The notes under the pieces: generated by a model
The model's database searches: none
What the model was told of the DNA's origin: nothing
What the model saw: the letters and a program-made list of their open reading frames with translations, nothing else
In this document: positions 26,125 through 39,391 of the stretch, in pieces
Numbering within the stretch: the first letter of the stretch is position 1
Layout: each line of letters opens with the position of its first letter
Assembly (NCBI RefSeq): GCF_017432245.1
Contig: NZ_JAFRJO010000046.1
Location: 1-47,839, forward strand
Reading direction: 5' to 3'
Source of the DNA: Methanobrevibacter sp.
GTDB lineage: Archaea; Methanobacteriota; Methanobacteria; Methanobacteriales; Methanobacteriaceae
Length of the DNA stretch: 47,839 bases
Made by a program: the position numbers and the translations under genes

Positions 26125-27336
26125 ATGAAAAAAAGTTTTGATGATTTGGAAGGAGCAGACCTTATAATTGATTGTATTTATGAGGGAGGTAATCAAGGAG
26201 GAACCCGTGCTGATCCTTTATCTAAATTATTTCCTAAGTGTGGGAATTTAGGTGGCTTTAGAAAAGTTAATAGGGCTGATGGTAGTGGTAAACCTGCTTA
26301 TGTTGTTTTAACTACTACAATGTCTGAATTGGAGTGGCCTGACTACATTGATGAGGAAACAGGTATTTTTAGATATTATGGAGATAATAGAAAATCTGGA
26401 AGAAGACACACAGATACAAAACCTAATGGAAATAAATTATTGGAGCATGTTTTTGCCATGTTAAATTCTAATGAATCTTTAGAAGACATGCCTCCTTTTT
26501 TTGTTTTTAAAAGTACTGGGACTGGTAGAGATTTTAAATTTTTAGGTTTAGCAGCTCCTGGAAATCCGAACATATCCCCAGATAGAGATTTGGTTGCTAT
26601 ATGGAGAACAATGGAAGGAAATAGATTTTTAAATTATGAATCTTATTTTACTATATTAGACACTGGCACTGAACCAATTACTCAGGACTGGTTAAAAAGC
26701 CTGATTGATAATCATGAAAATAATTTAAGATATGCCCCTTTGGTTTGGAAAAATTTTATAGCAAAAGGCCGTAATGGAATTCAAGCACTTAAAGCACCAA
26801 GGATTCATCAAGTTCCTTCAAAAAACGACCAAATGAACTGTGATAGGGAAGGAGAAAGGTGTATTGAGATAATATATAATCATTATAAAGAAAATCCTTT
26901 CGGCTTTGAAGCTTGTGCAACTGAGCTTATAAAAAACATGGATACAAACTTTGTAAAATTTGAGCTTACTAGGCCTTGGCGTGATGGTGGTAGGGATGCA
27001 TTTGGTGAATATCATATAAATTCAGAAAGCAGTGCAAATTATCCTTTAACTATAGAATTTGCTTTAGAGGCAAAATGCTTTTCACCTGATACTGGAGTAG
27101 GTGTTAAACCAATGTCTAGATTAATATCTAGAATAAAATATCGTCAATTTGGAATATTAGTTACTACAAGCTATGTTAGTAAACAAGCTTATAAAGAAGT
27201 TCATGAAGATGGGCATCCTATTTTAATTATTACAGCATCTGATATTGCATCAATTCTAAGATCTAATGGAATAACTACAAATAATATAGAAGAATGGTTA
27301 GAAAATATTGATCAGAATGTGACAAGATTATCATAA
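26125..27336 (+). CDS. AspBHI/MspJI-type modification-dependent restriction endonuclease
   Basis: This 403-residue protein has an AspBHI-type N-terminal recognition domain: EGADLIIDCIYEGGNQGG, DPLSKLFP, GNLGGFRKV, EWPDYIDEETGIFRYYGDNRKSGR, PPFFVFKSTGTGRDFKFLGLAAPG and AIWRTMEGNRFLNYESYFTILD. The C-terminal Mrr-like nuclease has DGGRDAFGEY (about 285) and EAK (about 315), a complete PD-(D/E)XK site. AspBHI cuts DNA containing 5-methylcytosine in a defined sequence context, so this protein should restrict modified invading DNA. It shares a promoter element with the mcrB-like gene. GGGTGT precedes the ATG at 26125. Confidence 0.88.
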   Translation: MKKSFDDLEGADLIIDCIYEGGNQGGTRADPLSKLFPKCGNLGGFRKVNRADGSGKPAYVVLTTTMSELEWPDYIDEETGIFRYYGDNRKSGRRHTDTKPNGNKLLEHVFAMLNSNESLEDMPPFFVFKSTGTGRDFKFLGLAAPGNPNISPDRDLVAIWRTMEGNRFLNYESYFTILDTGTEPITQDWLKSLIDNHENNLRYAPLVWKNFIAKGRNGIQALKAPRIHQVPSKNDQMNCDREGERCIEIIYNHYKENPFGFEACATELIKNMDTNFVKFELTRPWRDGGRDAFGEYHINSESSANYPLTIEFALEAKCFSPDTGVGVKPMSRLISRIKYRQFGILVTTSYVSKQAYKEVHEDGHPILIITASDIASILRSNGITTNNIEEWLENIDQNVTRLS

Positions 27337-28365: not shown

Positions 28366-29718
28366 TCATAGGTATAATTTTTCATTTAAAAATTCTTTTG
28401 TTAATGCAAAGGAAATTACTTTATCTTTTTCTAAAAATAAGTCATATGTATTTTTACCTTTACTTCTTTTTGGTGCAATTTCTATTATTTGCCCATCAAA
28501 AGATTTAGGCTTAGGTAATAAATTTAAATCTTCTTTTTCTATTGTTTCTTTAATCATATTGTAAGATTTTTCAATTGATTCTAAATCATCATCATTAAAA
28601 CTAATTCTTTTTACACCATCTAAAACCCTGTAACCATTTTTTGTCTTTTCTTTAGTAGGTTGTTTATAGCAAATAACTAACAATGTTGTTTCTTCAAAAT
28701 ATTTTTTCCAATCGGAATCTTCCCAATCATCAACGAAATCCTCTTTACTCATTGTCCTAAAGGTCATTCTTTCTTTCGGATAACCAGTACATAATAAAGG
28801 TAAATTTTTAATTATAAAACTTGATTTCTTAAATAAATCATTTTTTTCTTCCAATTCTTCATCTTTTCCAATTAAAATATTAGCTATTTGTTTATTTATA
28901 TCATAACGGACTATTTTTCCTCTTTCAAAAGTAACTCCAGTTAATTTTTCATATATTTCCACTTGTGTTTGCCCTAAATATGGTTCAATTTTATCGTAAA
29001 TATAATCTTCAGCTGTTTTATATCTAGTTTCAAATGTTAAGGTAGTTTGTTTGTGGTCTTCAAATCCATCTCTCAAAATCCAAGTCATATATTTTTGTTT
29101 CAATGAAAAAGCTCTAGTTGGAGCAAGAACATCAGAGTTTGGTTGAGTAGTAGTACTAGATCCGTCTGCTCCTTTCCTACAAGCACCTAAATAAGTTGTA
29201 TCTCCTTCTGATAAATCTTCGGCATGCCCTTTTAAAACTTTTTCTTGAATTGTATAAAAATCATTTTTAAAGATTTCTTTGTCAGTATCCATATCAAATA
29301 GCTGATAGTGTGTAATAACAAAGTCTTTAACCATTTTACCTTTTTCATAAACATACCAAATAAACAATATTTTTTGGTTTTTACTGATTAAATGGCTTCC
29401 TTCATAGTCTTCTTCAACGATTTCGTTAAAATTTATTTGATTTAAAGAAACTCTTTCTTTTGCTGATATGGTTCCATTTTTATTTTTTTTATATCCAGTA
29501 ACTTTTAATTCCACACCAATATTATCAAAATCAGCTTTAGAAATATTGTTGTTGGGATATTTGTAAAAACCAGTTTCAACTAACTTTCCTAAATCTCCTC
29601 TTCCTCCAACTAAACTGGTTCTATCCCCTAAAATGTCATCTTCATCAAATTCTTTAAATGTTTTACCTTTAATTGCTTCTGTATAGTTAAGTAATTCCTC
29701 AATTGTATTGAATTTCAT
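28366..29718 (-). CDS. Sau3AI/MutH-like type II restriction endonuclease (likely GATC)
   Basis: This 450-residue protein matches Sau3AI. The N-terminal MutH-like catalytic domain has GGRGDLGKLVETGFYKY (K45, E48) and KADFDNIGVELKVTG, giving the D63-x6-E70-x-K72 active site with the same spacing as MutH. The second half (about 240-450) resembles the inactive second MutH-like domain that binds another site in Sau3AI. It diverges from a C5-cytosine methyltransferase gene with 147 bases between, the expected layout of a GATC system in which the inner C is methylated. GGGGATT precedes the ATG. GATC specificity is inferred from family. Confidence 0.85.
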   Translation of the reverse strand: MKFNTIEELLNYTEAIKGKTFKEFDEDDILGDRTSLVGGRGDLGKLVETGFYKYPNNNISKADFDNIGVELKVTGYKKNKNGTISAKERVSLNQINFNEIVEEDYEGSHLISKNQKILFIWYVYEKGKMVKDFVITHYQLFDMDTDKEIFKNDFYTIQEKVLKGHAEDLSEGDTTYLGACRKGADGSSTTTQPNSDVLAPTRAFSLKQKYMTWILRDGFEDHKQTTLTFETRYKTAEDYIYDKIEPYLGQTQVEIYEKLTGVTFERGKIVRYDINKQIANILIGKDEELEEKNDLFKKSSFIIKNLPLLCTGYPKERMTFRTMSKEDFVDDWEDSDWKKYFEETTLLVICYKQPTKEKTKNGYRVLDGVKRISFNDDDLESIEKSYNMIKETIEKEDLNLLPKPKSFDGQIIEIAPKRSKGKNTYDLFLEKDKVISFALTKEFLNEKLYL

Positions 29719-29865: not shown

Positions 29866-31158
29866 ATGGATAAAACAGTAGTAGAATTATTTGCAGGTGT
29901 TGGTGGGTTCCGTTGTGGATTCAATCATGTTAGCCTAAAGGATGGAAAAGTCCACGAAGAGGATAATTGGGACTTTGTTTGGGCAAATCAATGGGAACCT
30001 TCCACTAAATCACAAGCTGCATTTGATTGTTATGTTGAAAGATTCGGAGAATCTGAGAATCATGTAAATGAGGACATAGCTACTGTTGATAAAAAGACAA
30101 TTCCTAATCACACTCTTCTTGTAGGAGGATTCCCTTGCCAGGATTATTCAGTTGCTCGTTCTTTATCTGGTGAAAAGGGAATTGAAGGTAAAAAAGGAGT
30201 GCTTTGGTGGCAAATAGCTGAAGTTTTAGAAGAAAAAAGGCCTCCTTTTGTTCTTTTGGAAAATGTAGATAGATTATTACGTTCACCTGCTAGCCAAAGA
30301 GGAAGAGACTTCGGTGTAATGTTAAGGACACTTCTCGACAACGGTTATTCCGTGGAGTGGAGAGTAATCAATGCTGCAGAATATGGATTCCCACAAAAGA
30401 GAAGAAGAGTATTTATTTTTGCTTATCATGAGTCTACTAATTATTATAAAAAGATGGATAAGGTAGATTATGAGGATTTAATTTACAAGGAAGGAATTTT
30501 TGCTAAGAATTTCCCAATTCAATATAATACAGATAAGAATTTGGATGGAAAAGAAGTTTCCATTGATGAATTTGGACAAACATCAATCAAAAAGAAAGAT
30601 TTTGATGATCTTGTAGCTATTAGTGATGATTTTGATTTCCATTTCTTTAATTCTGGACTTATGCATAAAGGAAATATTTACACCTTTAAGACCTCTCCTG
30701 TTGAATGTGAGAATATGACCACTTTAGGGGACATTATAGAAAAAGGAGAAGTTGATGAGAAATATTATCTTTTAGATGAAAAATTGGAAAAATGGAAGTA
30801 TTTAAAAGGATCTAAAAAAGTTCCTAGAAAAAGACCTAATGGTGAAACTTACTATTTTTCAGAAGGTAAAATTGCATTTCCTGATAAATTAGATGTTCCA
30901 GCTAGAACTATGCTAACTAGTGAAAGTACAACAAATAGAAGTTCTCATGTAGTTAAAGATGTTAAATCAGGCAATTTAAGAACTTTAACTCCAGTTGAGG
31001 CTGAAAGGATTCAGATGTTCCCAGATGATTGGACCAATATTGAATCTAAAGCGATGACTGAACGTAGAAGATACTTTATGATGGGTAATGCACTTGTTGT
31101 TGGTGTTGTAGAGCGTTTAGGTGATCATATTTCAACTATTGTTGAAAAGGAAGACTAA
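29866..31158 (+). CDS. DNA (cytosine-5)-methyltransferase, partner of the Sau3AI-like enzyme
   Basis: This 430-residue enzyme has ordered C5-methyltransferase motifs: I (ELFAGVGGF, 7-15), IV (GGFPCQDYS, catalytic Cys near 90), VI (LLENVDR), VIII (QKRRRVFIF), a variable target-recognition region (about 205-345), and IX/X (ARTMLTSES, RTLTPVEAERIQMFPDDW, MMGNALVVGVV). It transfers a methyl group from S-adenosylmethionine to cytosine and should protect host GATC sites from the divergent endonuclease. GAGG lies eight bases before the ATG. Its product, 5-methylcytosine, is the type of mark that the AspBHI-like and McrBC-like enzymes recognise in other contexts. Confidence 0.93.
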   Translation: MDKTVVELFAGVGGFRCGFNHVSLKDGKVHEEDNWDFVWANQWEPSTKSQAAFDCYVERFGESENHVNEDIATVDKKTIPNHTLLVGGFPCQDYSVARSLSGEKGIEGKKGVLWWQIAEVLEEKRPPFVLLENVDRLLRSPASQRGRDFGVMLRTLLDNGYSVEWRVINAAEYGFPQKRRRVFIFAYHESTNYYKKMDKVDYEDLIYKEGIFAKNFPIQYNTDKNLDGKEVSIDEFGQTSIKKKDFDDLVAISDDFDFHFFNSGLMHKGNIYTFKTSPVECENMTTLGDIIEKGEVDEKYYLLDEKLEKWKYLKGSKKVPRKRPNGETYYFSEGKIAFPDKLDVPARTMLTSESTTNRSSHVVKDVKSGNLRTLTPVEAERIQMFPDDWTNIESKAMTERRRYFMMGNALVVGVVERLGDHISTIVEKED

Positions 31159-31277: not shown

Positions 31278-32225
31278 ATTTTAACTAATTCTGAAAATTT
31301 AGATATTTGTCCATTCTGTAAGAATGTTATTCCACATGGTCCTGCTTATTTTTGTCCTACTTGTGGAAAGAGATTGGATGAAAAATATTCTAAAAGGCAA
31401 ATTATTTTAGAAAATACAGACATTTTAATGGATGAAACTGATTTTGAAGACTCTTCTATTGATGAATTAGAAGACATTACTAGTTTAATTCAGTCTAATA
31501 GTTCATATTCTAATGATTTTACCTCAGATATAAATCAAGATGAAAAATCAGATGATATTGTAAAAAGTACTGATGAGAATGAACAGGGGACTATTGAAAA
31601 TATCGAAGAGGACTCATTAGATTCTGAAGATGACATCAATGAAAATTCAAGCGAAGTTAACTTAAAATCACAAAATAATTCTATTAAATTAGATCTATTC
31701 CTAAAATATTGTGTAGATGAAGAGTTCTCTTATAATTTCTTAAGATTTAAAATTGTTGATGCAGATGGTGATAAGGACACTTTAGTGAATAGGATTATAT
31801 CTAATTTTAATTTAAGAGACATTATTAATTACAAGTATAAGTATAGATCTTCTAAATTAGAAGAAATTTTTGATTCATTTGTTAAACCGTTAAAAGTTGT
31901 TGATTTAGTTAGCATTGCCGAAAAATATGATGTTAAGGTTTCTTTAAGTAAAAGCGCTTTAAAAAATAATTTTTTCGAAAAATTTGATTCTTATGATTTA
32001 ATTCTTGTTTTAAATAATGAAGGATTAGACATTTACCATTATGCAAAAATTTCGGTTTTAGAGCAAATTTATCTCTTAAATGACAAGAAATTAATAAAAG
32101 AGGCGGGTAAATGTCCAAACATTAATCATTCCAGGCATGAAATGATTTCTTGTCTAGTTAAAAATTTCAGTGAAGGATTCTTAATAAGCAACAATAAGTT
32201 TGAAAGAGGGGAGGATACTAAATGA
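31278..32225 (+). CDS. Zinc-ribbon protein, first gene of the seven-gene operon, apparent AUU start
   Basis: This protein of about 315 residues starts with a zinc ribbon (ICPFCKNVIPHGPAYFCPTCGKRL), then an acidic low-complexity linker rich in Asp, Ser and Glu (about 45-130), and a helical C-terminal half with SAP-like short helices (VNRIISNFNLRDI, SALKNNFFEKF). No catalytic motif is seen. The first canonical start, TTG 31374, would remove the zinc ribbon. Upstream there is no ATG, GTG or TTG before a stop at 31260; ATT at 31278, seven bases after GGGG, is the best start. The stop overlaps the next gene by four bases (ATGA), so the two are coupled. Confidence 0.65.
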   Translation: MLTNSENLDICPFCKNVIPHGPAYFCPTCGKRLDEKYSKRQIILENTDILMDETDFEDSSIDELEDITSLIQSNSSYSNDFTSDINQDEKSDDIVKSTDENEQGTIENIEEDSLDSEDDINENSSEVNLKSQNNSIKLDLFLKYCVDEEFSYNFLRFKIVDADGDKDTLVNRIISNFNLRDIINYKYKYRSSKLEEIFDSFVKPLKVVDLVSIAEKYDVKVSLSKSALKNNFFEKFDSYDLILVLNNEGLDIYHYAKISVLEQIYLLNDKKLIKEAGKCPNINHSRHEMISCLVKNFSEGFLISNNKFERGEDTK

Positions 32226-35044
32226 AACTAAGACTGTATACTGCTAAGGAGGATTCTGAAAATTTCAGCAGATCTTTTTCAACAAAATTATATCCTAAAT
32301 TTGAGCGCAGCACTTTCTTATTTGTAGATTTTAGTATCAATGAATCTCAAAAAGATGTTTTTAAAATACAAGTATTTTACTCAGAAAATGGATTTTTTTA
32401 TACTAAATTTAATTCAAAAGAGATTATTAGGCATGCTTTTGGAAAATGGGATCAACTAAATTTTATATTGGCAAGTGATAAAAACAAGCCTTTAAATCCT
32501 TTATTTATTTTTGATTTTCCATTAAATAATTCTAAATCCCCTTATGATGCAATGTTTGCGAATGTAAATGGTGAATTGCATATTTTATCTAAAATTTACA
32601 ATTTATCTGATGAACATTTTAAATTATTGAGAAAATCCTATAAGTTATATAAAACTAAGGGTGCTGATTACACTTTATTTGATTTTGGAAATTGCTTTAG
32701 TTTCATTGATAAATTTTTAAATAATCTTGAAACTATTCTAGATGATGTAGATTTCAAATTAAACGATTCTAATGAATTAATTATTAATCCGATTCCTTTA
32801 GATTCAATTAGAAAAAGGGAAGATAATTATAAATTCTGCATGATTTGTGGTAAAAAATTAGAATCTACTCTTAATAAGAATTTATTGGAGCTTTCTCGTA
32901 AATTCCCTGCAAGATGTGAAAATTGCTTAAAGAAAATTTATGCATTAGATCTTTATTATAAACTAAATGAAGGTTCTATTTCAACTAATATGCTTTCTAC
33001 ATCTGAATTGGAATATATGTGGGATGAAGAAGGATTATTTGAATATAATTTTAAATTATTAAAAGATTATGGATTTTTAAAACCATTTTCCGATGATATT
33101 TATAAATTATATCTCAATGATGATATAAATGAAGCTTTTGGTTCTTTATTAAATCCTATTGAAGAAAAAGGAGAGGAATCTAAATCAAAATCCGCACTTG
33201 ATGATTACTTTGGCTTTACTGATGATAAAGAAAAACCTAAATGCAGAATTTGTGGAAAGGAAATTGAAGAAGAGGATGGAACTGATATTTGTTCTAATTG
33301 CTTTGATAAGCAAATGACAATTGAACAAATCCACAAGTTTTTAGAATATGTAAAACCTGGAACAGGATTTAGTAAATCTTCTTTGATTGAAAAAGGTTTT
33401 AATATTATTGATTTGGATATAACTATTGCAGATTTAGAAGATAATGGTTTATTAAGATATGATTCCGATGATCTCATCATTTTAGCTAATAGAACCAAAT
33501 TAAACGAATTTATTAGGGAATATTCTGATTCTGAAGAATATATTATTCAAATAAAGGAAGAAGAAATTCCTAAATTAAATATTTATGACGAATATTTGAA
33601 AAGTGAAGAAACCTTAGATAAAGCAATAAATCTAATAGATTATCAAAACTTTGTTGAATGTTATTATAATCATGAAAATTCTGATTGGATTGTTACTCTT
33701 AAAAAGGAAGGCCATATTTTCCTAAGTCAAAATTTTGTCACTCCATATCAAGCTAAACTGATGGCTGTAAGATATTTGGGAGAAATTGGCGTTGTAAACA
33801 TTATTAAAAATAATTTTGATTCGAAGTTTGAGAATAATCATGTATTAAGGGGACCTACAGAAATTAAAGATGCAAAAACCGAAGCAAATCTAGATTTATC
33901 TGAAGAATCGAAAGATATTGGACCTAAGAATGATTCGGATGTTTCCATTAAAACTAATGTATCTGCTAATAAACATAAAAAATGTCTCATATGTGGAAAT
34001 GAGATTATTCACAAAGATTATGCTACAAATAGGAAATATTGTGATGAATGCAAAAATAAATATAAACCTTCAGAATTAAGTGCTTTAGTTGGTATTAAAG
34101 AGGGGAAATACACTGAAGAAACAGTGAATTCTATTAAGAAATTAAAAATGGAAGGAAAAACTAATACTCAAATTGCATATAAATTAGGCATACCTAATCC
34201 TCTAATTACTCCTATTTTAAGACATTATCCTACAGATAATGCTTCATCATTATCATTTGTTCCAGAGAATAATAAGGAGAGCAATAATAGTAAAGTGTGC
34301 CCTATTTGTAAAAAAACTTTTGAAGAAAAAAAGAGAGGGTCTGGCCAAAAGTATTGTGATGATTGTAAAAGCAAATTTACTCCAACTGAAATTCAAGTGT
34401 TAATCGGAATTAATGAAGGAAAATACACCACAGAACTAGCTATTAGACTTAAAGATTTAAAAGAACAAGGGTTTACAAATACTTTTATTTCCTCCGAAGA
34501 AAATATTCCATTAACTCTAGTAACTCCTATTATCCATATTTTATTAGATGATGATAAAAAAATTGATGGAATTTCTTTCAATAAGAAATTATCAAAATGG
34601 TTTGTATATACAAAAGTTAATAATGAATATATTAATCTAGGTTTTTACAAAACAAAAGAAGAAGCTATTTTAGCTAGAAATAAATATTATGATGTCCACC
34701 CTTATAAAGAAAACTTTGACAAATTGGATTTATCTGTAGAAGAAGCTGAAGAAGAAATTGAAAAAATTGATGAGGAAACTCAAAATGAATCATTAAAACA
34801 ATTATTCCAAAAAGATTGCGGAGATGATTATTCAAAAATTTTCTTAAAAGGCATAATTTCAGAAAAGGATCGAGTGTCTATCTTCAATTTTATTTCATTT
34901 ATAAATTGCAATTTAAATAAACTCCTTTGTGAAAAACTAGAAGATAATAATTATGATTTCATGTTAGACATTGATATAGAAAAAAGCCGTTTAAAATCAG
35001 CTTTAAAAGATTTAAAATTATTAGGTTGGGAAAATGCAAAATAG
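32222..35044 (+). CDS. 940-residue multi-zinc-ribbon, HTH and AP2-like DNA-binding protein
   Basis: I do not recognise the whole protein. Zinc-binding pairs are visible near residues 206/231 (CMIC/CENC), 341/357 (CRIC/CSNC), 588/607 (CLIC/CDEC) and 694/712 (CPIC/CDDC). The last two belong to a tandem repeat of about 100 residues, each a zinc ribbon followed by an HTH-like stretch (SIKKLKMEGKTNTQIAYKLG; RLKDLKEQGFTNTFI). An AP2-like domain follows (about 781-826: GISFNKKLSKWFVY, then NLGFYKTKEEAILARNKY), with a weaker one near 473-513. There is no nuclease or ATPase motif. It looks like the DNA-recognition subunit of the operon. It overlaps the previous gene by four bases and the helicase gene by eleven. 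Confidence 0.75.
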   Translation: MKLRLYTAKEDSENFSRSFSTKLYPKFERSTFLFVDFSINESQKDVFKIQVFYSENGFFYTKFNSKEIIRHAFGKWDQLNFILASDKNKPLNPLFIFDFPLNNSKSPYDAMFANVNGELHILSKIYNLSDEHFKLLRKSYKLYKTKGADYTLFDFGNCFSFIDKFLNNLETILDDVDFKLNDSNELIINPIPLDSIRKREDNYKFCMICGKKLESTLNKNLLELSRKFPARCENCLKKIYALDLYYKLNEGSISTNMLSTSELEYMWDEEGLFEYNFKLLKDYGFLKPFSDDIYKLYLNDDINEAFGSLLNPIEEKGEESKSKSALDDYFGFTDDKEKPKCRICGKEIEEEDGTDICSNCFDKQMTIEQIHKFLEYVKPGTGFSKSSLIEKGFNIIDLDITIADLEDNGLLRYDSDDLIILANRTKLNEFIREYSDSEEYIIQIKEEEIPKLNIYDEYLKSEETLDKAINLIDYQNFVECYYNHENSDWIVTLKKEGHIFLSQNFVTPYQAKLMAVRYLGEIGVVNIIKNNFDSKFENNHVLRGPTEIKDAKTEANLDLSEESKDIGPKNDSDVSIKTNVSANKHKKCLICGNEIIHKDYATNRKYCDECKNKYKPSELSALVGIKEGKYTEETVNSIKKLKMEGKTNTQIAYKLGIPNPLITPILRHYPTDNASSLSFVPENNKESNNSKVCPICKKTFEEKKRGSGQKYCDDCKSKFTPTEIQVLIGINEGKYTTELAIRLKDLKEQGFTNTFISSEENIPLTLVTPIIHILLDDDKKIDGISFNKKLSKWFVYTKVNNEYINLGFYKTKEEAILARNKYYDVHPYKENFDKLDLSVEEAEEEIEKIDEETQNESLKQLFQKDCGDDYSKIFLKGIISEKDRVSIFNFISFINCNLNKLLCEKLEDNNYDFMLDIDIEKSRLKSALKDLKLLGWENAK

Positions 35045-36371
35045 TAACTCAAATATTAAACTAAGAGATTATCAAATAGAAGCTATCGATTCTTGGTTTA
35101 ATAATGATTGTAGAGGTATTTTTGAAATGGCTACAGGTACAGGAAAGACTTTTACAGCTCTTTCTTGCTTTAAGCAACTTTCAGATACTAAAGACAGATT
35201 ATTAACAGTTATTGCATGTCCTCAATCTCATTTAATAGATCAATGGATAAATGAATTAAAAAAATTTCATGATGGCCCAATTATAACCGCATCTGGAAAG
35301 AATTATAAATGGAAAAAAGATTTTAAAAATTTATATACAGATTATTATTTAGGGCTAGTTGATAAAGCAGTTGTTTTAACAACACATATTTCTTTATCTT
35401 CAGATTATTTCCTAGATACAATTCAAGAATTTGAAGTAGAAATATTGTTAATTGTTGATGAAGTTCATGGGATAGGTTCAGAAAAACAAATGATTGCATT
35501 AAATAATCGTTATGATTATCGTTTAGGCTTAAGTGCAACTCCTGCAAGATGGTTTGATGATTTTGGAACTCATGTTATTGAAGAATTCTTTGGTGGAGTT
35601 GTATTTGAATTTGACATAGAAAGAGCTTTAAATGAGTTTAATCCAGATACTGGAAAGACTTATTTAACTCCTTATATTTATAAACCGATTCTCGTTGATT
35701 TAACTTATGATGAATTTGAAAAATATTCTAATTATAGTAGGAAAATCGCTGTTATGATGGAGGCGGATGAAGAAAAGGATGAAAATGGTGTAAGTTTAGA
35801 GACATATTTCTTTGCTCGTCAGAAAATAATTAACAATGCTGAAGAAAAATACAAAGCATTTATTGATATACTAGAAGAAAAACCAGACATTGATAAATTA
35901 ATTGTATTTTGCTCTCCACAGCAAATAGACAGAGTTCAGGAAATTTTAAATGAAAAAAGGATTATTCCTCAACATAGATTCACTCAAGAGCAATCGGCTA
36001 CAAAGAAGAAAAATGACATATATTCAGAAAGGGAATATTTGCTTAAAAAGTTTGAAGATGGATCTTATAAGGCTTTAGTGGCTATTAAATGTTTAGATGA
36101 AGGTGTTGATGTTCCTTCAGCTGAAAACGCAATTATTATGTCAAGCACTTCAAATCCAAGAGAACACGTCCAAAGAAGAGGTCGTATTTTAAGAAATTCT
36201 CCTGGAAAGGAAAGAGCTATTATTTATGATATTTTGGTATTTCCAAAAGAAACAACTAAAATAGGAGAAAAGATAAGAGAAAAGGAAATCAATAGATACA
36301 TGGGATTTGCATCTAATGCAGAAAATTCATGGGAATGTATTAAATTATTGAAGAAATTAGGAGAATGGTGA
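35034..36371 (+). CDS. SF2 DEAD/DEAH-type helicase
   Basis: This 445-residue helicase has motif Q/I (LRDYQIEAIDSW, ATGTGKTFTAL at 33-43), motif II (VDEVHG near 141), motif III (LGLSATP), motif V (KCLDEGVDVPSA) and motif VI (QRRGRILR). It is a compact ResIII/XPB-like translocase without nuclease or extra domains. It probably couples ATP hydrolysis to movement on double-stranded DNA after recognition by the 940-residue protein, whose gene it overlaps. The stop is followed by GGTGAT and the next small gene within five bases. Confidence 0.92.
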   Translation: MQNSNSNIKLRDYQIEAIDSWFNNDCRGIFEMATGTGKTFTALSCFKQLSDTKDRLLTVIACPQSHLIDQWINELKKFHDGPIITASGKNYKWKKDFKNLYTDYYLGLVDKAVVLTTHISLSSDYFLDTIQEFEVEILLIVDEVHGIGSEKQMIALNNRYDYRLGLSATPARWFDDFGTHVIEEFFGGVVFEFDIERALNEFNPDTGKTYLTPYIYKPILVDLTYDEFEKYSNYSRKIAVMMEADEEKDENGVSLETYFFARQKIINNAEEKYKAFIDILEEKPDIDKLIVFCSPQQIDRVQEILNEKRIIPQHRFTQEQSATKKKNDIYSEREYLLKKFEDGSYKALVAIKCLDEGVDVPSAENAIIMSSTSNPREHVQRRGRILRNSPGKERAIIYDILVFPKETTKIGEKIREKEINRYMGFASNAENSWECIKLLKKLGEW

Positions 36372-36375
36372 TTGT

Positions 36376-36549
36376 ATGGCTTTAAAAGTAGGAAAAAAAC
36401 TAATAGAAGATATTCAGAATTCTGAATATGATGAAAAAACCAAAGCATTCATAATTCAAGCTTTGAGGTTGGAATTTAAAAGAGAAAAAGAGGATATAAG
36501 CCATTATTTTAAAAAATATGATAGTTTAATTGAAAATTTCGTAGATTAA
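36376..36549 (+). CDS. 57-residue operon protein between helicase and SMC genes
   Basis: The protein (MALKVGKKLIEDIQNSEYDEKT, then IIQALRLEFKREKEDISHYF) is charged and wholly helical, with no known domain. GGTGAT lies three bases before the ATG and overlaps the helicase stop region; the next gene starts nine bases past its stop behind GGTGG. These signals and its codon pattern support a real gene. It may bridge the helicase and the SMC ATPase. Confidence 0.75.
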   Translation: MALKVGKKLIEDIQNSEYDEKTKAFIIQALRLEFKREKEDISHYFKKYDSLIENFVD

Positions 36550-36558
36550 GGTGGGAAA

Positions 36559-38535
36559 ATGATACTTAATAGGGTTTCTATTCGTAATTATCGCCAATAT
36601 CGTAATGTTGATATTGATTTTGCCCAAGGTGATGGTAAAAATTTCACAATTATTCAAGGAAATAACGGAACAGGAAAAACCACACTATTAAATTGTTTAA
36701 GTTGGTGTCTTTATGGTTCTGAAATTCATGACTATAAGGATGATTCTTCAATGGAAATATGTAATAATAAAACTGCTAATTTGGCAGTAATTGGAGATAA
36801 AATAAAAGTTAGTGTGGAATTAGAATTTTTAGATGAAGGAGAGATTTTAGCTTTCCATAGAGTAAAAGGGTTCCGTAAAACAGAAACAGGCTTAGTATCA
36901 CAACCTAGTTTGGATAAATTTGAGGTTAAAACACAAGAAGGCAATGATATTAAAGTAAAGGCAAATGATTCATACACAATTGAACGTAAAATTCCTCAAG
37001 CTATTGAAGATTATTTCTTTTTTGATGGAGCTCGTTTAAGCGAATACTTCCAAAAGGAAAAGACAAAAAAAATTAGAGAAACAGTATTTAGCTTATCTCA
37101 ATTAAACTTACTTGAAAATGCTAGTAAAAATTTGATAAAAGTGAAAGATCAGTATATTTCTAAAATAAAGCAATTAGAGCCTAAAATTGGAGGGGCTAGT
37201 GAAAAAGTAAGTGAATATGATAAACAGATTAAAGAAGCAGAAGAGGACTTAGAAAAAACAGAAAACGATCTTAAAGAAATTAAAATAGAAATTGACAACA
37301 TTAATGATGAATTAGTCAACAAAAAATCAACTGAAGTTAGAAAAGATGCAGAAAGAAATATAGTGCTTGATAATGCAATAGACTCAAATAATAAAAAACT
37401 GTCAAAATTAGAAGCTGAAAGAAAAAAGCATGTATTAACTAAATACCCATTCATTTTATCTTATGAGTCTTTTTTGAGTTTTATGGAATTAGGTGAAAAA
37501 TCTAGACAAAAAGGTTATATTCCACCTAAATTTAAAAGAAGTTTCATTCAAGATTTATTAGATGAAGGTAAATGTATTTGTGGTACTGATTTATCAGTTG
37601 ATATAGAACACAGAAAAATGTTAGAACAACTTTTGGAAGAGACTAATCCTTTAACTGATCATGCTGAAGAACTTACAGTTGCTTTAAATCAAGTTAAAGA
37701 AGTTATCATGAAAGACATTCAAAAATTCAAATCTAGATCTTTTGAGATTCATTCCGAGATTCGTTCTATAAATGAAGAGCAAGAAAAATTAATCATTGAA
37801 AAAAGAGATGTGGAGTCTAGATTAACTGATAATCCTCTTGAAGGTATTGAAAGATTAACCAATCGTAGAAAACAATTAAGAACATCAAAGGATAGTAAAG
37901 AAACTAAAATTAAAAATTTAAAATCTCATATAGAAAAATTAGAAGGAGAACGAGGGGAACAACGTAAATTAGTTAATAAAGAGGCACGCTACTCAAAAGA
38001 AATTGAAGAATTCAGAATTAAAAAGGAATTCTGTGAAAATATGAGTAAGTCTACTGAAACTATTTACAAAGATTTAAAAGAAAAAATGAGGGCAAATGTT
38101 CAAGAATTAACTAAAGAAAAATTCATCAAAATCTCTTGGAAAGAAGATGAGTTTGTTGATATAATAATTGACGAGGATTATGAAGTTTTCATTCAAAATA
38201 GGTTAGGTGATTTAGAAAGACCTGGAGATTTATCAGATGGTGAAAAATTATGTTTAGGTCTTTGTTTTATGTCTGCATTACACAATATTTCTGGATTTGA
38301 ACTGCCTATTATTATGGATACTCCTTTAGGTAATTTAGATGTTGATATGAGGCATAACATTGCAGAATTTTTACCTCAATTTGTAGGTGATAAACAAACA
38401 GTTTTACTTGTAACTGGAACCGAGTATACTGATGACTTTAGGGACACTATACATGGTTCAGTTGGAAAAGAATATATGATTGAGTGGAATAATTCTGATG
38501 AAGGTAAAGAGTCTAAGGTGGTTTTAAATGGCTAA
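36559..38535 (+). CDS. DndD-like SMC/Rad50-type ATPase
   Basis: This 658-residue protein has an ABC-type head with Walker A GNNGTGKT (34-41), a DndD-like YFFFDGARLSEYF segment near 154, long coiled coils (about 190-290 and 365-500) around a CICG turn at 339-341, signature LSDGEKLCLGL, and Walker B LPIIMDTPLGNLD near 582-594. It resembles DndD of phosphorothioation systems and other SMC-like defence ATPases. DndA and DndC are absent, so DNA sulphur modification is unlikely. The hook is CxC where Rad50 has CxxC. It overlaps the next gene by eight bases. Confidence 0.9.
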   Translation: MILNRVSIRNYRQYRNVDIDFAQGDGKNFTIIQGNNGTGKTTLLNCLSWCLYGSEIHDYKDDSSMEICNNKTANLAVIGDKIKVSVELEFLDEGEILAFHRVKGFRKTETGLVSQPSLDKFEVKTQEGNDIKVKANDSYTIERKIPQAIEDYFFFDGARLSEYFQKEKTKKIRETVFSLSQLNLLENASKNLIKVKDQYISKIKQLEPKIGGASEKVSEYDKQIKEAEEDLEKTENDLKEIKIEIDNINDELVNKKSTEVRKDAERNIVLDNAIDSNNKKLSKLEAERKKHVLTKYPFILSYESFLSFMELGEKSRQKGYIPPKFKRSFIQDLLDEGKCICGTDLSVDIEHRKMLEQLLEETNPLTDHAEELTVALNQVKEVIMKDIQKFKSRSFEIHSEIRSINEEQEKLIIEKRDVESRLTDNPLEGIERLTNRRKQLRTSKDSKETKIKNLKSHIEKLEGERGEQRKLVNKEARYSKEIEEFRIKKEFCENMSKSTETIYKDLKEKMRANVQELTKEKFIKISWKEDEFVDIIIDEDYEVFIQNRLGDLERPGDLSDGEKLCLGLCFMSALHNISGFELPIIMDTPLGNLDVDMRHNIAEFLPQFVGDKQTVLLVTGTEYTDDFRDTIHGSVGKEYMIEWNNSDEGKESKVVLNG

Positions 38536-38947
38536 AGTAAATGAAAGAAGGATTAATTATAATGAAGATGATTATGAAACTTTAAAAAGATTAATGGTTG
38601 AAGAACCTTTTAGAAGTTTAAATCTCATAGATATTTTTGCAATTTCCTTAATATATGGGAAAAAAGCAGGAATAAGAACTCCTTTGGATAAGAAAAAAAC
38701 TGGCCGTATACGTCAAACAACAATTGAAAATTCTAATGTTCATTATTTAATGATGGCCGTTGCTGTTGAGGAAACAGGGAGTTTTGAAGTTTTAGCTAAA
38801 CGTAATGATTACTTTAAAATATGTGAAGAATATGCAAAAACTGGCCTATCTCTTTTAGAAGAAGATTTCATTGAAAATCCTAAAGGATTATTAGATGATT
38901 TAGAGCTTGAAGCATTAAAATATTTTGATAAGTTTATAAAACAATAA
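38528..38947 (+). CDS. 139-residue helical operon protein
   Basis: I do not recognise a family. The protein (MAKVNERRINYNEDDYETLKRL, LNLIDIFAISLIYGKKAG, TIENSNVHYLMMAVAVEETGSF) is basic at the N-terminus and helical. Size, position after the DndD-like gene and a conserved-looking helical core recall DndE, but the sequence does not show DndE motifs, so equivalence is only a structural guess. AAGGTGG precedes its ATG, which lies inside the SMC gene end. Confidence 0.7.
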   Translation: MAKVNERRINYNEDDYETLKRLMVEEPFRSLNLIDIFAISLIYGKKAGIRTPLDKKKTGRIRQTTIENSNVHYLMMAVAVEETGSFEVLAKRNDYFKICEEYAKTGLSLLEEDFIENPKGLLDDLELEALKYFDKFIKQ

Positions 38948-38968
38948 TTTTTATTTTAAAGTGATTTT

Positions 38969-39391
38969 ATGTCCGAATTTAAAGATTTCTATGATACTTT
39001 AATAGAAAACTTAGAGGGATACGAGGGTGAATACGCATACTTTATCAATTGTGGCCCTAATTTATTTAATCTCTTATGCGACCTTCTTTCGCAAGAGGAA
39101 ATTAATAGACAGATGAGATTAGAAATTAGTGCAGCTATTGCATATTATGTTGCTCCAGATGATATCATCCCAGAGGAAATATATGGCCCTTATGGTTATA
39201 TTGATGATATCTTCGTATCTGTTTATGTTTTAAGAAAAGTAGCCAAACAATTTGGCTATGATTTTCTTCAAAATTTATGGAATCATGAAACTGATGTTAA
39301 AGAAGTTATGGATGATTGTTATGATAATTCTTTAGAATTATTGGAAGACAAAGTTCACCCAGTCTTATCTTATGTTGGTTTGATGGATTAA
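38969..39391 (+). CDS. YkvA/DUF1232 domain protein
   Basis: This 140-residue protein has the DUF1232 signature near 50-85: SAAIAYYVAPDDIIPEEIYGPYGYIDDIFVSVYVLRKV. In many YkvA proteins the segment is hydrophobic and membrane-associated; here it is only mildly so. DUF1232 genes recur beside restriction and helicase genes, but the function is unknown; a membrane-directed effector is one possibility. AAGTGAT is three bases before the ATG. It is the last gene of the operon, followed by a 139-base gap with a promoter. Confidence 0.8.
   Translation: MSEFKDFYDTLIENLEGYEGEYAYFINCGPNLFNLLCDLLSQEEINRQMRLEISAAIAYYVAPDDIIPEEIYGPYGYIDDIFVSVYVLRKVAKQFGYDFLQNLWNHETDVKEVMDDCYDNSLELLEDKVHPVLSYVGLMD

What the first reader, a model, noticed from the sequence alone, without database searches (positions are those of the whole stretch)
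31278..39391. Seven-gene operon that may be an undescribed defence system
Seven overlapping or closely spaced genes encode a zinc-ribbon protein, a 940-residue zinc-ribbon/HTH/AP2-like protein, an SF2 helicase, a 57-residue protein, a DndD-like SMC ATPase, a 139-residue protein and a YkvA/DUF1232 protein. Coupled translation (ATGA overlap, 11-base and 8-base overlaps) shows they are one unit. They sit between a Sau3AI-like system and McrBC. DndA and DndC are missing, so it is not phosphorothioation. No nuclease motif is visible in any gene, so the effector step is unclear: the SMC ATPase, the YkvA protein or a hidden nuclease could act. I cannot match this gene set to a named system.
Basis: partly seen in the sequence, partly recalled or inferred. 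Interest (0 to 1): 0.88.

Follow-up and report, generated by a model that had tools for sequence, protein, structure and literature searches.

The report
Nuclease-less PbeABCD defence locus variant
The seven-gene operon is an archaeal antiviral system built on the known PbeABCD genes, but it has lost the usual DNA-cutting domain, has no DNA-sulphur-marking genes, and has gained extra DNA-binding genes; the missing cutter makes it a natural test of how Pbe stops viruses.

Summary
The operon is real. Four of its seven genes are PbeABCD (the CxC-ATPase/DndE system) in canonical order: pbeA helicase (35034-36371), pbeB (36376-36549), pbeC (36559-38535, CIC zinc hook), pbeD (38528-38947). So the core is not undescribed. 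It differs from the haloarchaeal prototype in three ways. (1) PbeA lacks the N-terminal PLD/HKD nuclease that 35 of 38 relatives in the order carry; a supported tree shows secondary loss. (2) No phosphorothioation genes were found in the (87% complete) genome. The adjacent Sau3AI-type (GATC) C5 methyltransferase is the only candidate self-mark; this pair recurs beside Pbe-type genes in five relatives. (3) The operon adds a 940-aa zinc-ribbon/wHTH/AP2 protein and a YkvA protein; relatives of these sit together beside BrxD-SngB/BrxHI-SngC genes without Pbe, so they look like a transferable accessory pair. P0001 is an orphan. Best explanation: GATC methylation marks self; PbeCD and the helicase block replication of unmarked DNA without a nuclease of their own. 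A separate cutter is not excluded. New variant of a known kind; it makes the published dispute (replication block versus cleavage) directly testable.

The parts
28366..29718 (-). Sau3AI-like restriction endonuclease (GATC family), divergent from the methyltransferase; possible partner or independent R-M nuclease
   Evidence: PDB 4pxg Sau3AI E 5.6e-45; homologues beside Pbe-type genes in L059, L062, L071, L085, L086
29866..31158 (+). DNA cytosine-5 methyltransferase, Sau3AI type; candidate self-marking gene
   Evidence: Only one of four kinds of Pbe-linked modification gene found in the own genome; 6 of 18 close homologues in the order lie within 10 kb of a PbeC-like gene
31278..32225 (+). P0001, zinc-ribbon protein of 315 aa (ATT start likely); orphan
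   Evidence: Weak DZR match; no homologue beyond the zinc ribbon in 151 genomes of the order
32222..35044 (+). P0002, 940 aa: N-terminal domain (1-195, fold unknown), zinc-ribbon/wHTH units, AP2-like DNA-binding units, C-terminal ACT-like domain
   Evidence: core homologues just upstream of pbeA in L059, L061, L062
35034..36371 (+). pbeA, SF2 helicase without the N-terminal PLD nuclease
   Evidence: PADLOC PbeA 2.8e-154, matching only profile positions 246-667 of 672; PLD with HxK..D absent by alignment; nested among PLD-bearing PbeAs
36376..36549 (+). pbeB, 57-aa small protein
   Evidence: phmmer 4.5e-18 to the small gene at the same place in L057; similar small genes at the same place in many loci
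36559..38535 (+). pbeC, CxC-type ABC ATPase with CIC zinc hook
   Evidence: PADLOC PbeC 1.8e-187 over the full length; C339 and C341 conserved in Pbe rows, absent in the true DndD of L096
38528..38947 (+). pbeD (clade-2 DndE according to the literature)
   Evidence: TIGR04062 dnd_assoc_4 8.8e-12, below its cut-off; 39-53% identity to the pbeD of nine close loci
38969..39391 (+). YkvA/DUF1232 protein, accessory
   Evidence: PF06803 1.8e-8; homologues beside P0002-like proteins near BrxD-SngB/BrxHI-SngC genes and beside Pbe

Best explanation
The operon is a PbeABCD-type (CxC-ATPase/PbeD) antiviral system that uses GATC cytosine methylation, not phosphorothioation, as the self mark. The methyltransferase at 29866-31158 marks host GATC sites (inferred). 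The PbeC ATPase with PbeD scans DNA for the unmarked site, with PbeB as a small regulator or linker (inferred from the Pbe literature). Recognition of unmarked DNA engages the PbeA helicase, and invading DNA is stopped at replication without cleavage by PbeA, because its PLD nuclease has been lost (the loss is shown; the mechanism is inferred). The zinc-ribbon/wHTH/AP2 protein P0002 and the YkvA protein are an accessory pair that probably adds DNA or replication-fork recognition in place of the PLD domain (inferred). A cleaving step, if any, would come from another protein such as the adjacent Sau3AI-like nuclease.
For: Core identity. Canonical gene order and a small gene at the pbeB place; PMC6459918. 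PLD loss nested among PLD-bearing PbeAs, 97/99 support, one of three separate PLD-less cases; no PLD domain elsewhere in the genome (best match E 0.01 with a stop inside). No DndC, no B12-radical-SAM gene, no D12 methyltransferase in the own genome. C5 methyltransferase beside Pbe-type genes in 6 of 18 cases against a rough chance expectation of about 0.06 (my arithmetic: about 45 loci of 22 kb in about 317 Mb). GATC is the phosphorothioate motif of four haloarchaea with Dnd (PMC6459918); GATC is at 0.48 of expectation in 304 kb of the own genome. Published data that the A29 system blocks replication with viral DNA intact, and that pbeB, C and D are essential but pbeA only partly so, fit a nuclease-less form. 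P0002/YkvA as a shared pair.
Against: No experiment exists on this locus. The published system depended on phosphorothioation and its pbe genes were inactive without it, so the locus could be non-functional. Sau3AI plus methyltransferase is a complete R-M system on its own, and a T-rich gap of 119 bases separates it from the operon. In L059 and L062 a D12 methyltransferase is present too, so the C5 enzyme need not be the Pbe mark there. GATC avoidance is explained by Sau3AI alone. Defence genes cluster in general, so the chance figure is too generous. A nuclease in the unresolved N-terminal domain of P0002 (pLDDT about 41) is not excluded. PbeD-DndE homology was not recovered by my own profile comparison.
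Confidence: 0.5

Rival explanations
1. A complete cleaving Pbe-type system: a hidden nuclease in P0002 (N-terminal domain), or the Sau3AI-like enzyme recruited by the Pbe complex, replaces the lost PLD, so that unmarked DNA is cut.
For: The other two PLD-less PbeAs come with another module: L068 with DndFGH and L066 with a fused zinc-ribbon/HEAT region. The Sau3AI pair lies beside Pbe in L059 and L062. PMC10853773 argues that cleavage is part of Pbe action.
Against: No nuclease family, motif or solved relative for P0002; L059 and L062 keep both PLD and Sau3AI, so Sau3AI is not a specific replacement; published Southern blots of the A29 system show intact viral DNA.
Confidence: 0.25
2. Degraded or solitary Pbe: the pbe genes are remnants or inactive without phosphorothioation, and the Sau3AI R-M and McrBC do the work in this island.
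For: Solitary PbeAC are common and were suggested to be possibly inactive; the PLD is lost; the genome lacks DndC.
Against: All frames are open and coupled, helicase and ATPase motifs are kept; 36 of 151 genomes of the order have a PbeC match of 100 bits or more while only one has DndC above the cut-off, so Pbe without Dnd is maintained in this lineage.
Confidence: 0.15
3. A chimera of two independent defence units: PbeABCD plus a P0001/P0002/YkvA system that acts by itself and only shares the promoter.
For: P0002-like plus YkvA pairs occur without Pbe in L077-L080, L082, L087-L089, L091.
Against: The pair flanks Pbe in one coupled operon, P0002 overlaps pbeA by 11 bases, and the zinc-ribbon/wHTH core of P0002 sits immediately upstream of pbeA in three relatives.
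Confidence: 0.1

Closest known systems
PbeABCD of Haloterrigena jeotgali A29 (PMC6459918)
   Same: Same four genes in the same order: PbeA helicase, small PbeB, CxC ATPase PbeC, PbeD
   Different: No DndC in the genome; PbeA lacks PLD; three extra genes in the operon; a C5 methyltransferase instead of phosphorothioation genes next door
CxC-ABC ATPase/DndE systems with cytosine methylases (PMC10853773)
   Same: CxC zinc hook, PbeD, small protein, C5 methyltransferase nearby without PT genes
   Different: That paper finds the HKD nuclease fused to the helicase in the vast majority; here it is absent. No mention of zinc-ribbon/wHTH or YkvA partners in its main text
Pbe locus of G022 (L059), same genus
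   Same: Sau3AI, methyltransferase (89% identical), zinc-ribbon/wHTH protein, pbeABCD in the same order
   Different: PbeA keeps PLD; a D12 methyltransferase and an AP2-like gene lie between; no YkvA
Shango/BREX-like genes BrxD-SngB and BrxHI-SngC with YkvA and P0002-like genes (L087 and others)
   Same: Same YkvA family and a protein with the same C-terminal domain
   Different: No Pbe genes there; the SngB/SngC-type genes are not in the window
Sau3AI restriction-modification
   Same: Nuclease homologous to Sau3AI beside a C5 methyltransferase
   Different: Lies next to Pbe; whether it works with it is untested

Membership tests
PbeABCD | PbeA helicase homologue | tested here: met
   PADLOC PbeA 2.8e-154
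PbeABCD | PLD nuclease domain fused to the PbeA helicase | tested here: not met
   Absent from pbeA; present in 35 of 38 PbeAs compared; no PLD homologue of note in the genome. Hence 'variant', not standard member
PbeABCD | CxC-type ABC ATPase PbeC | tested here: met
   PADLOC PbeC 1.8e-187; CIC hook conserved in Pbe and missing in DndD of L096
PbeABCD | Small PbeB between A and C | tested here: met
   57-aa gene at that place, with detectable similarity to the small genes of other Pbe loci
PbeABCD | PbeD (DndE cognate) after PbeC | tested here: met
   TIGR04062 8.8e-12, below its cut-off; clear homologues in canonical Pbe loci. The DndE homology itself was not recovered
PbeABCD | Associated DndCDEA phosphorothioation genes | tested here: not met
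   No DndC in the 87% complete genome; rare in the order. The literature shows that more than half of PbeAC pairs lack dndCD nearby
PbeABCD | Antiviral activity that depends on a DNA self mark | not testable with these tools
   Needs experiment
CxC-ATPase system with cytosine methylase | C5 methyltransferase in the neighbourhood | tested here: met
   29866-31158; recurrent beside Pbe-type genes
Dnd phosphorothioation | DndC present | tested here: not met
Shango | SngB and SngC genes | tested here: not met
   Only a weak SngC-type helicase hit (E 3.9e-4) to pbeA; no SngB

The most novel reading that the evidence does not exclude
P0002 and the YkvA protein are a transferable two-gene module, attached to Pbe here and to BrxD-SngB/BrxHI-SngC loci elsewhere, that replaces the PLD nuclease and gives Pbe a nuclease-free way to recognise and stall invading replication forks, with GATC C5 methylation as the self mark.
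Probability: 0.25. Interest if true: 0.7.

Novelty: new variant of a known kind. Interest (0 to 1): 0.5.

Why it matters
Two published views conflict: PbeABCD was reported to block viral replication without cutting DNA (PMC6459918), whereas a later analysis argued that its PLD nuclease implies cutting (PMC10853773). A natural PbeABCD without the PLD domain, in an operon with intact frames, separates these views. It also offers a case in which the self mark would be GATC cytosine methylation, so that one core may accept different marks on the same site. In Methanobacteriales, Pbe loci nearly always carry a methyltransferase or a B12-radical-SAM gene instead of DndC.

Tried and rejected
Undescribed system: rejected for the core. 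DndD or SMC identity of the ATPase: rejected; CxC hook and PbeC profile. PLD domain moved to another gene or elsewhere in the genome: not found. Hidden nuclease in P0002: no family, motif or solved relative. Its full-length model is confident only in about 340-530 and 860-940; the PDB fold search gave no match at E 0.001 or better, with ACT-like hits at E 0.03 that fit the size of the C-terminal domain. The N-terminal model is poor, so that point is inconclusive. Homologues of P0001 in the order: none beyond a zinc ribbon. Profile comparison of PbeD with the DndE of L096: no signal; the assignment rests on TIGR04062 and the literature. The genome-contig scan with PbeC alone gave only two close loci. 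Solved-structure searches for YkvA and PbeD: nothing meaningful. PADLOC gave no match for PbeB or PbeD of canonical relatives either, so their absence there says nothing about the window. Paper searches for DUF1232 in defence and for a radical-SAM link to Pbe found nothing relevant in the open library.
Full report
What is there. Seven genes run from 31278 to 39391 on the + strand, with overlaps of 4, 11 and 8 bases and gaps of 4, 9 and 21 bases. The first has no standard start; ATT at 31278 follows GGGGGA. Upstream is a C5 methyltransferase (29866-31158) divergent from a Sau3AI homologue (PDB 4pxg, E 5.6e-45); downstream are McrBC-type genes. The window's own name is not given, but two genomes of the same family are recognisable from record titles as Methanobrevibacter and Methanosphaera, so the order is taken as Methanobacteriales.

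Identity of the core. Genes 3 to 6 are PbeABCD. PADLOC gives PbeA at 2.8e-154 and PbeC at 1.8e-187 over the full length. NCBIfam gives dnd_restrict_1 for the helicase and dnd_assoc_4 for the 139-residue protein, both below the curated cut-offs. The order is that of Haloterrigena jeotgali (PMC6459918). The ATPase has the CIC zinc hook that defines the CxC clade (PMC10853773); C339 and C341 are conserved in the Pbe rows and missing in the true DndD of G025. The 57-residue gene is at the place of pbeB and resembles the small genes there in other loci. PbeD is called a DndE by the literature; I could not recover that homology with my own comparison.

What is unusual, 1: no nuclease. The window's PbeA matches PADLOC's PbeA only from position 246; the N-terminal PLD with its HxK..D motif, seen in the full-length relatives, is missing. 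Of 38 PbeA rows from the order, 35 keep the PLD. The three without it (window, L066, L068) fall in separate places of the tree, and the window row lies inside a supported group (97/99) of PLD-bearing PbeAs. So the PLD was lost here secondarily. The other two PLD-less cases carry something else: L068 has DndFGH downstream, and L066 has about 1750 residues of zinc-ribbon/wHTH units and HEAT repeats fused in front. No convincing PLD homologue was found elsewhere in the own genome.

What is unusual, 2: the mark. DndC is absent from the own genome and above cut-off in one of 151 genomes of the order, yet 36 of the 151 have a PbeC match of 100 bits or more (my count). In the loci mapped, Pbe sits with a C5 methyltransferase, a D12 methyltransferase or a B12-binding radical-SAM gene; loci with none of these are mostly cut by contig ends, apart from L060 and L121 (L121 has a cysteine-desulfurase-like gene, and a weak DndC match lies beside it). 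Counting places: the radical-SAM family has 28 copies, 26 of them beside a PbeC-like gene; D12 copies 15 of 46; Sau3AI-type C5 copies 6 of 18. The six are the window, G022, G104, G036, G076 and G103; the G103 locus is a DISARM-like drmA/B/E set followed by PbeB, C and D. The own genome has no radical-SAM and no D12 homologue, which leaves the C5 methyltransferase. The phosphorothioate motif in four haloarchaea is GATC (PMC6459918), the D12 gene of L063 is followed by a DpnII homologue, and GATC is at 0.48 of expectation in 304 kb of the own genome. That Pbe reads GATC and accepts different marks is an inference; GATC avoidance is also expected from Sau3AI alone.

What is unusual, 3: the accessory genes. 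P0002 is a modular DNA-binding protein: zinc-ribbon/wHTH units, AP2-like units and a C-terminal domain of ACT-like topology. The confident parts of the model are about 340-530 and 860-940; the first 200 residues are not resolved. Its core is related to 456-595-residue proteins directly upstream of PLD-bearing pbeA in L059, L061 and L062. Its N-terminal domain recurs in seven genomes, its C-terminal domain in a set of large zinc-ribbon/HTH proteins. YkvA homologues stand beside such proteins in L077-L080, L082, L087-L089 and L091, several of them next to BrxD-SngB and BrxHI-SngC type genes (tested by profile in L087), and beside Pbe in the window, L060, L083 and L084. The pair is thus shared by unlike defence loci. 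P0001 is an orphan.

Most likely mechanism. Shown by sequence: PbeABCD core, helicase and ATPase motifs kept, no PLD, no DndC, methyltransferase and Sau3AI nearby, zinc-ribbon/wHTH and YkvA genes in the operon. Inferred: methylation at GATC protects host DNA; PbeCD senses unmarked DNA; PbeA and the accessory proteins stop replication of the invader. The published A29 system left viral DNA intact, needed pbeB, C and D and only partly pbeA, which a nuclease-less PbeA fits. Against: that system needed phosphorothioation, and PMC10853773 holds that cleavage is part of it. The locus may be inactive, or a different protein such as the Sau3AI homologue may cut.

Verdict. Ordinary in its core, unusual in its form: a new variant of a known kind.

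Noticed in passing
L061:6945-8306 and 27 other copies in the order: A B12-binding radical-SAM protein lies beside a PbeC-like gene in 26 of 28 copies in Methanobacteriales; the two Pbe papers I searched do not mention it. It could be an unrecognised self-marking enzyme. Absent from the window's genome.
   Followed up: partly
L071:7386-20000 (G103:C24): A DISARM-like set (DrmA, DrmB, weak DrmE) runs straight into PbeB, PbeC and a PbeD-like gene, with the Sau3AI-type methyltransferase upstream.
   Followed up: partly
L087:8987-15821 and similar places in L078-L080, L082, L088, L091: YkvA plus a large zinc-ribbon/HTH protein sits beside BrxD-SngB and BrxHI-SngC type genes in several Methanobacteriales.
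   Followed up: partly
L068:8421-19900 (G121): PLD-less PbeA with PbeBCD followed directly by DndF, DndG and DndH.
   Followed up: partly
L066:5182-11805 (G140): PbeA helicase fused behind about 1750 residues of repeated zinc-ribbon/wHTH units and HEAT repeats.
   Followed up: no
window 31278 and 39531: Two genes (P0001 and the upstream part of McrB) seem to start at ATT TTA codons shortly after a G-rich ribosome-binding site; ATT starts are rare.
   Followed up: no
window and L124-L143 (304 kb of the own genome): GATC is at 0.48 of the expectation from trinucleotides; CTAG 0.52, CGCG 0.38.
   Followed up: partly
L121 (G053:C132): A PbeA/PbeC locus with a cysteine-desulfurase-like gene and a weak DndC-like match beside it, so a possible phosphorothioate type in this order.
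   Followed up: no
window 26125-27336: A 403-aa protein just before the Sau3AI-like gene with GGRDAFG...EAKC by eye, as in Mrr-type restriction endonuclease domains; not searched with profiles.
   Followed up: no
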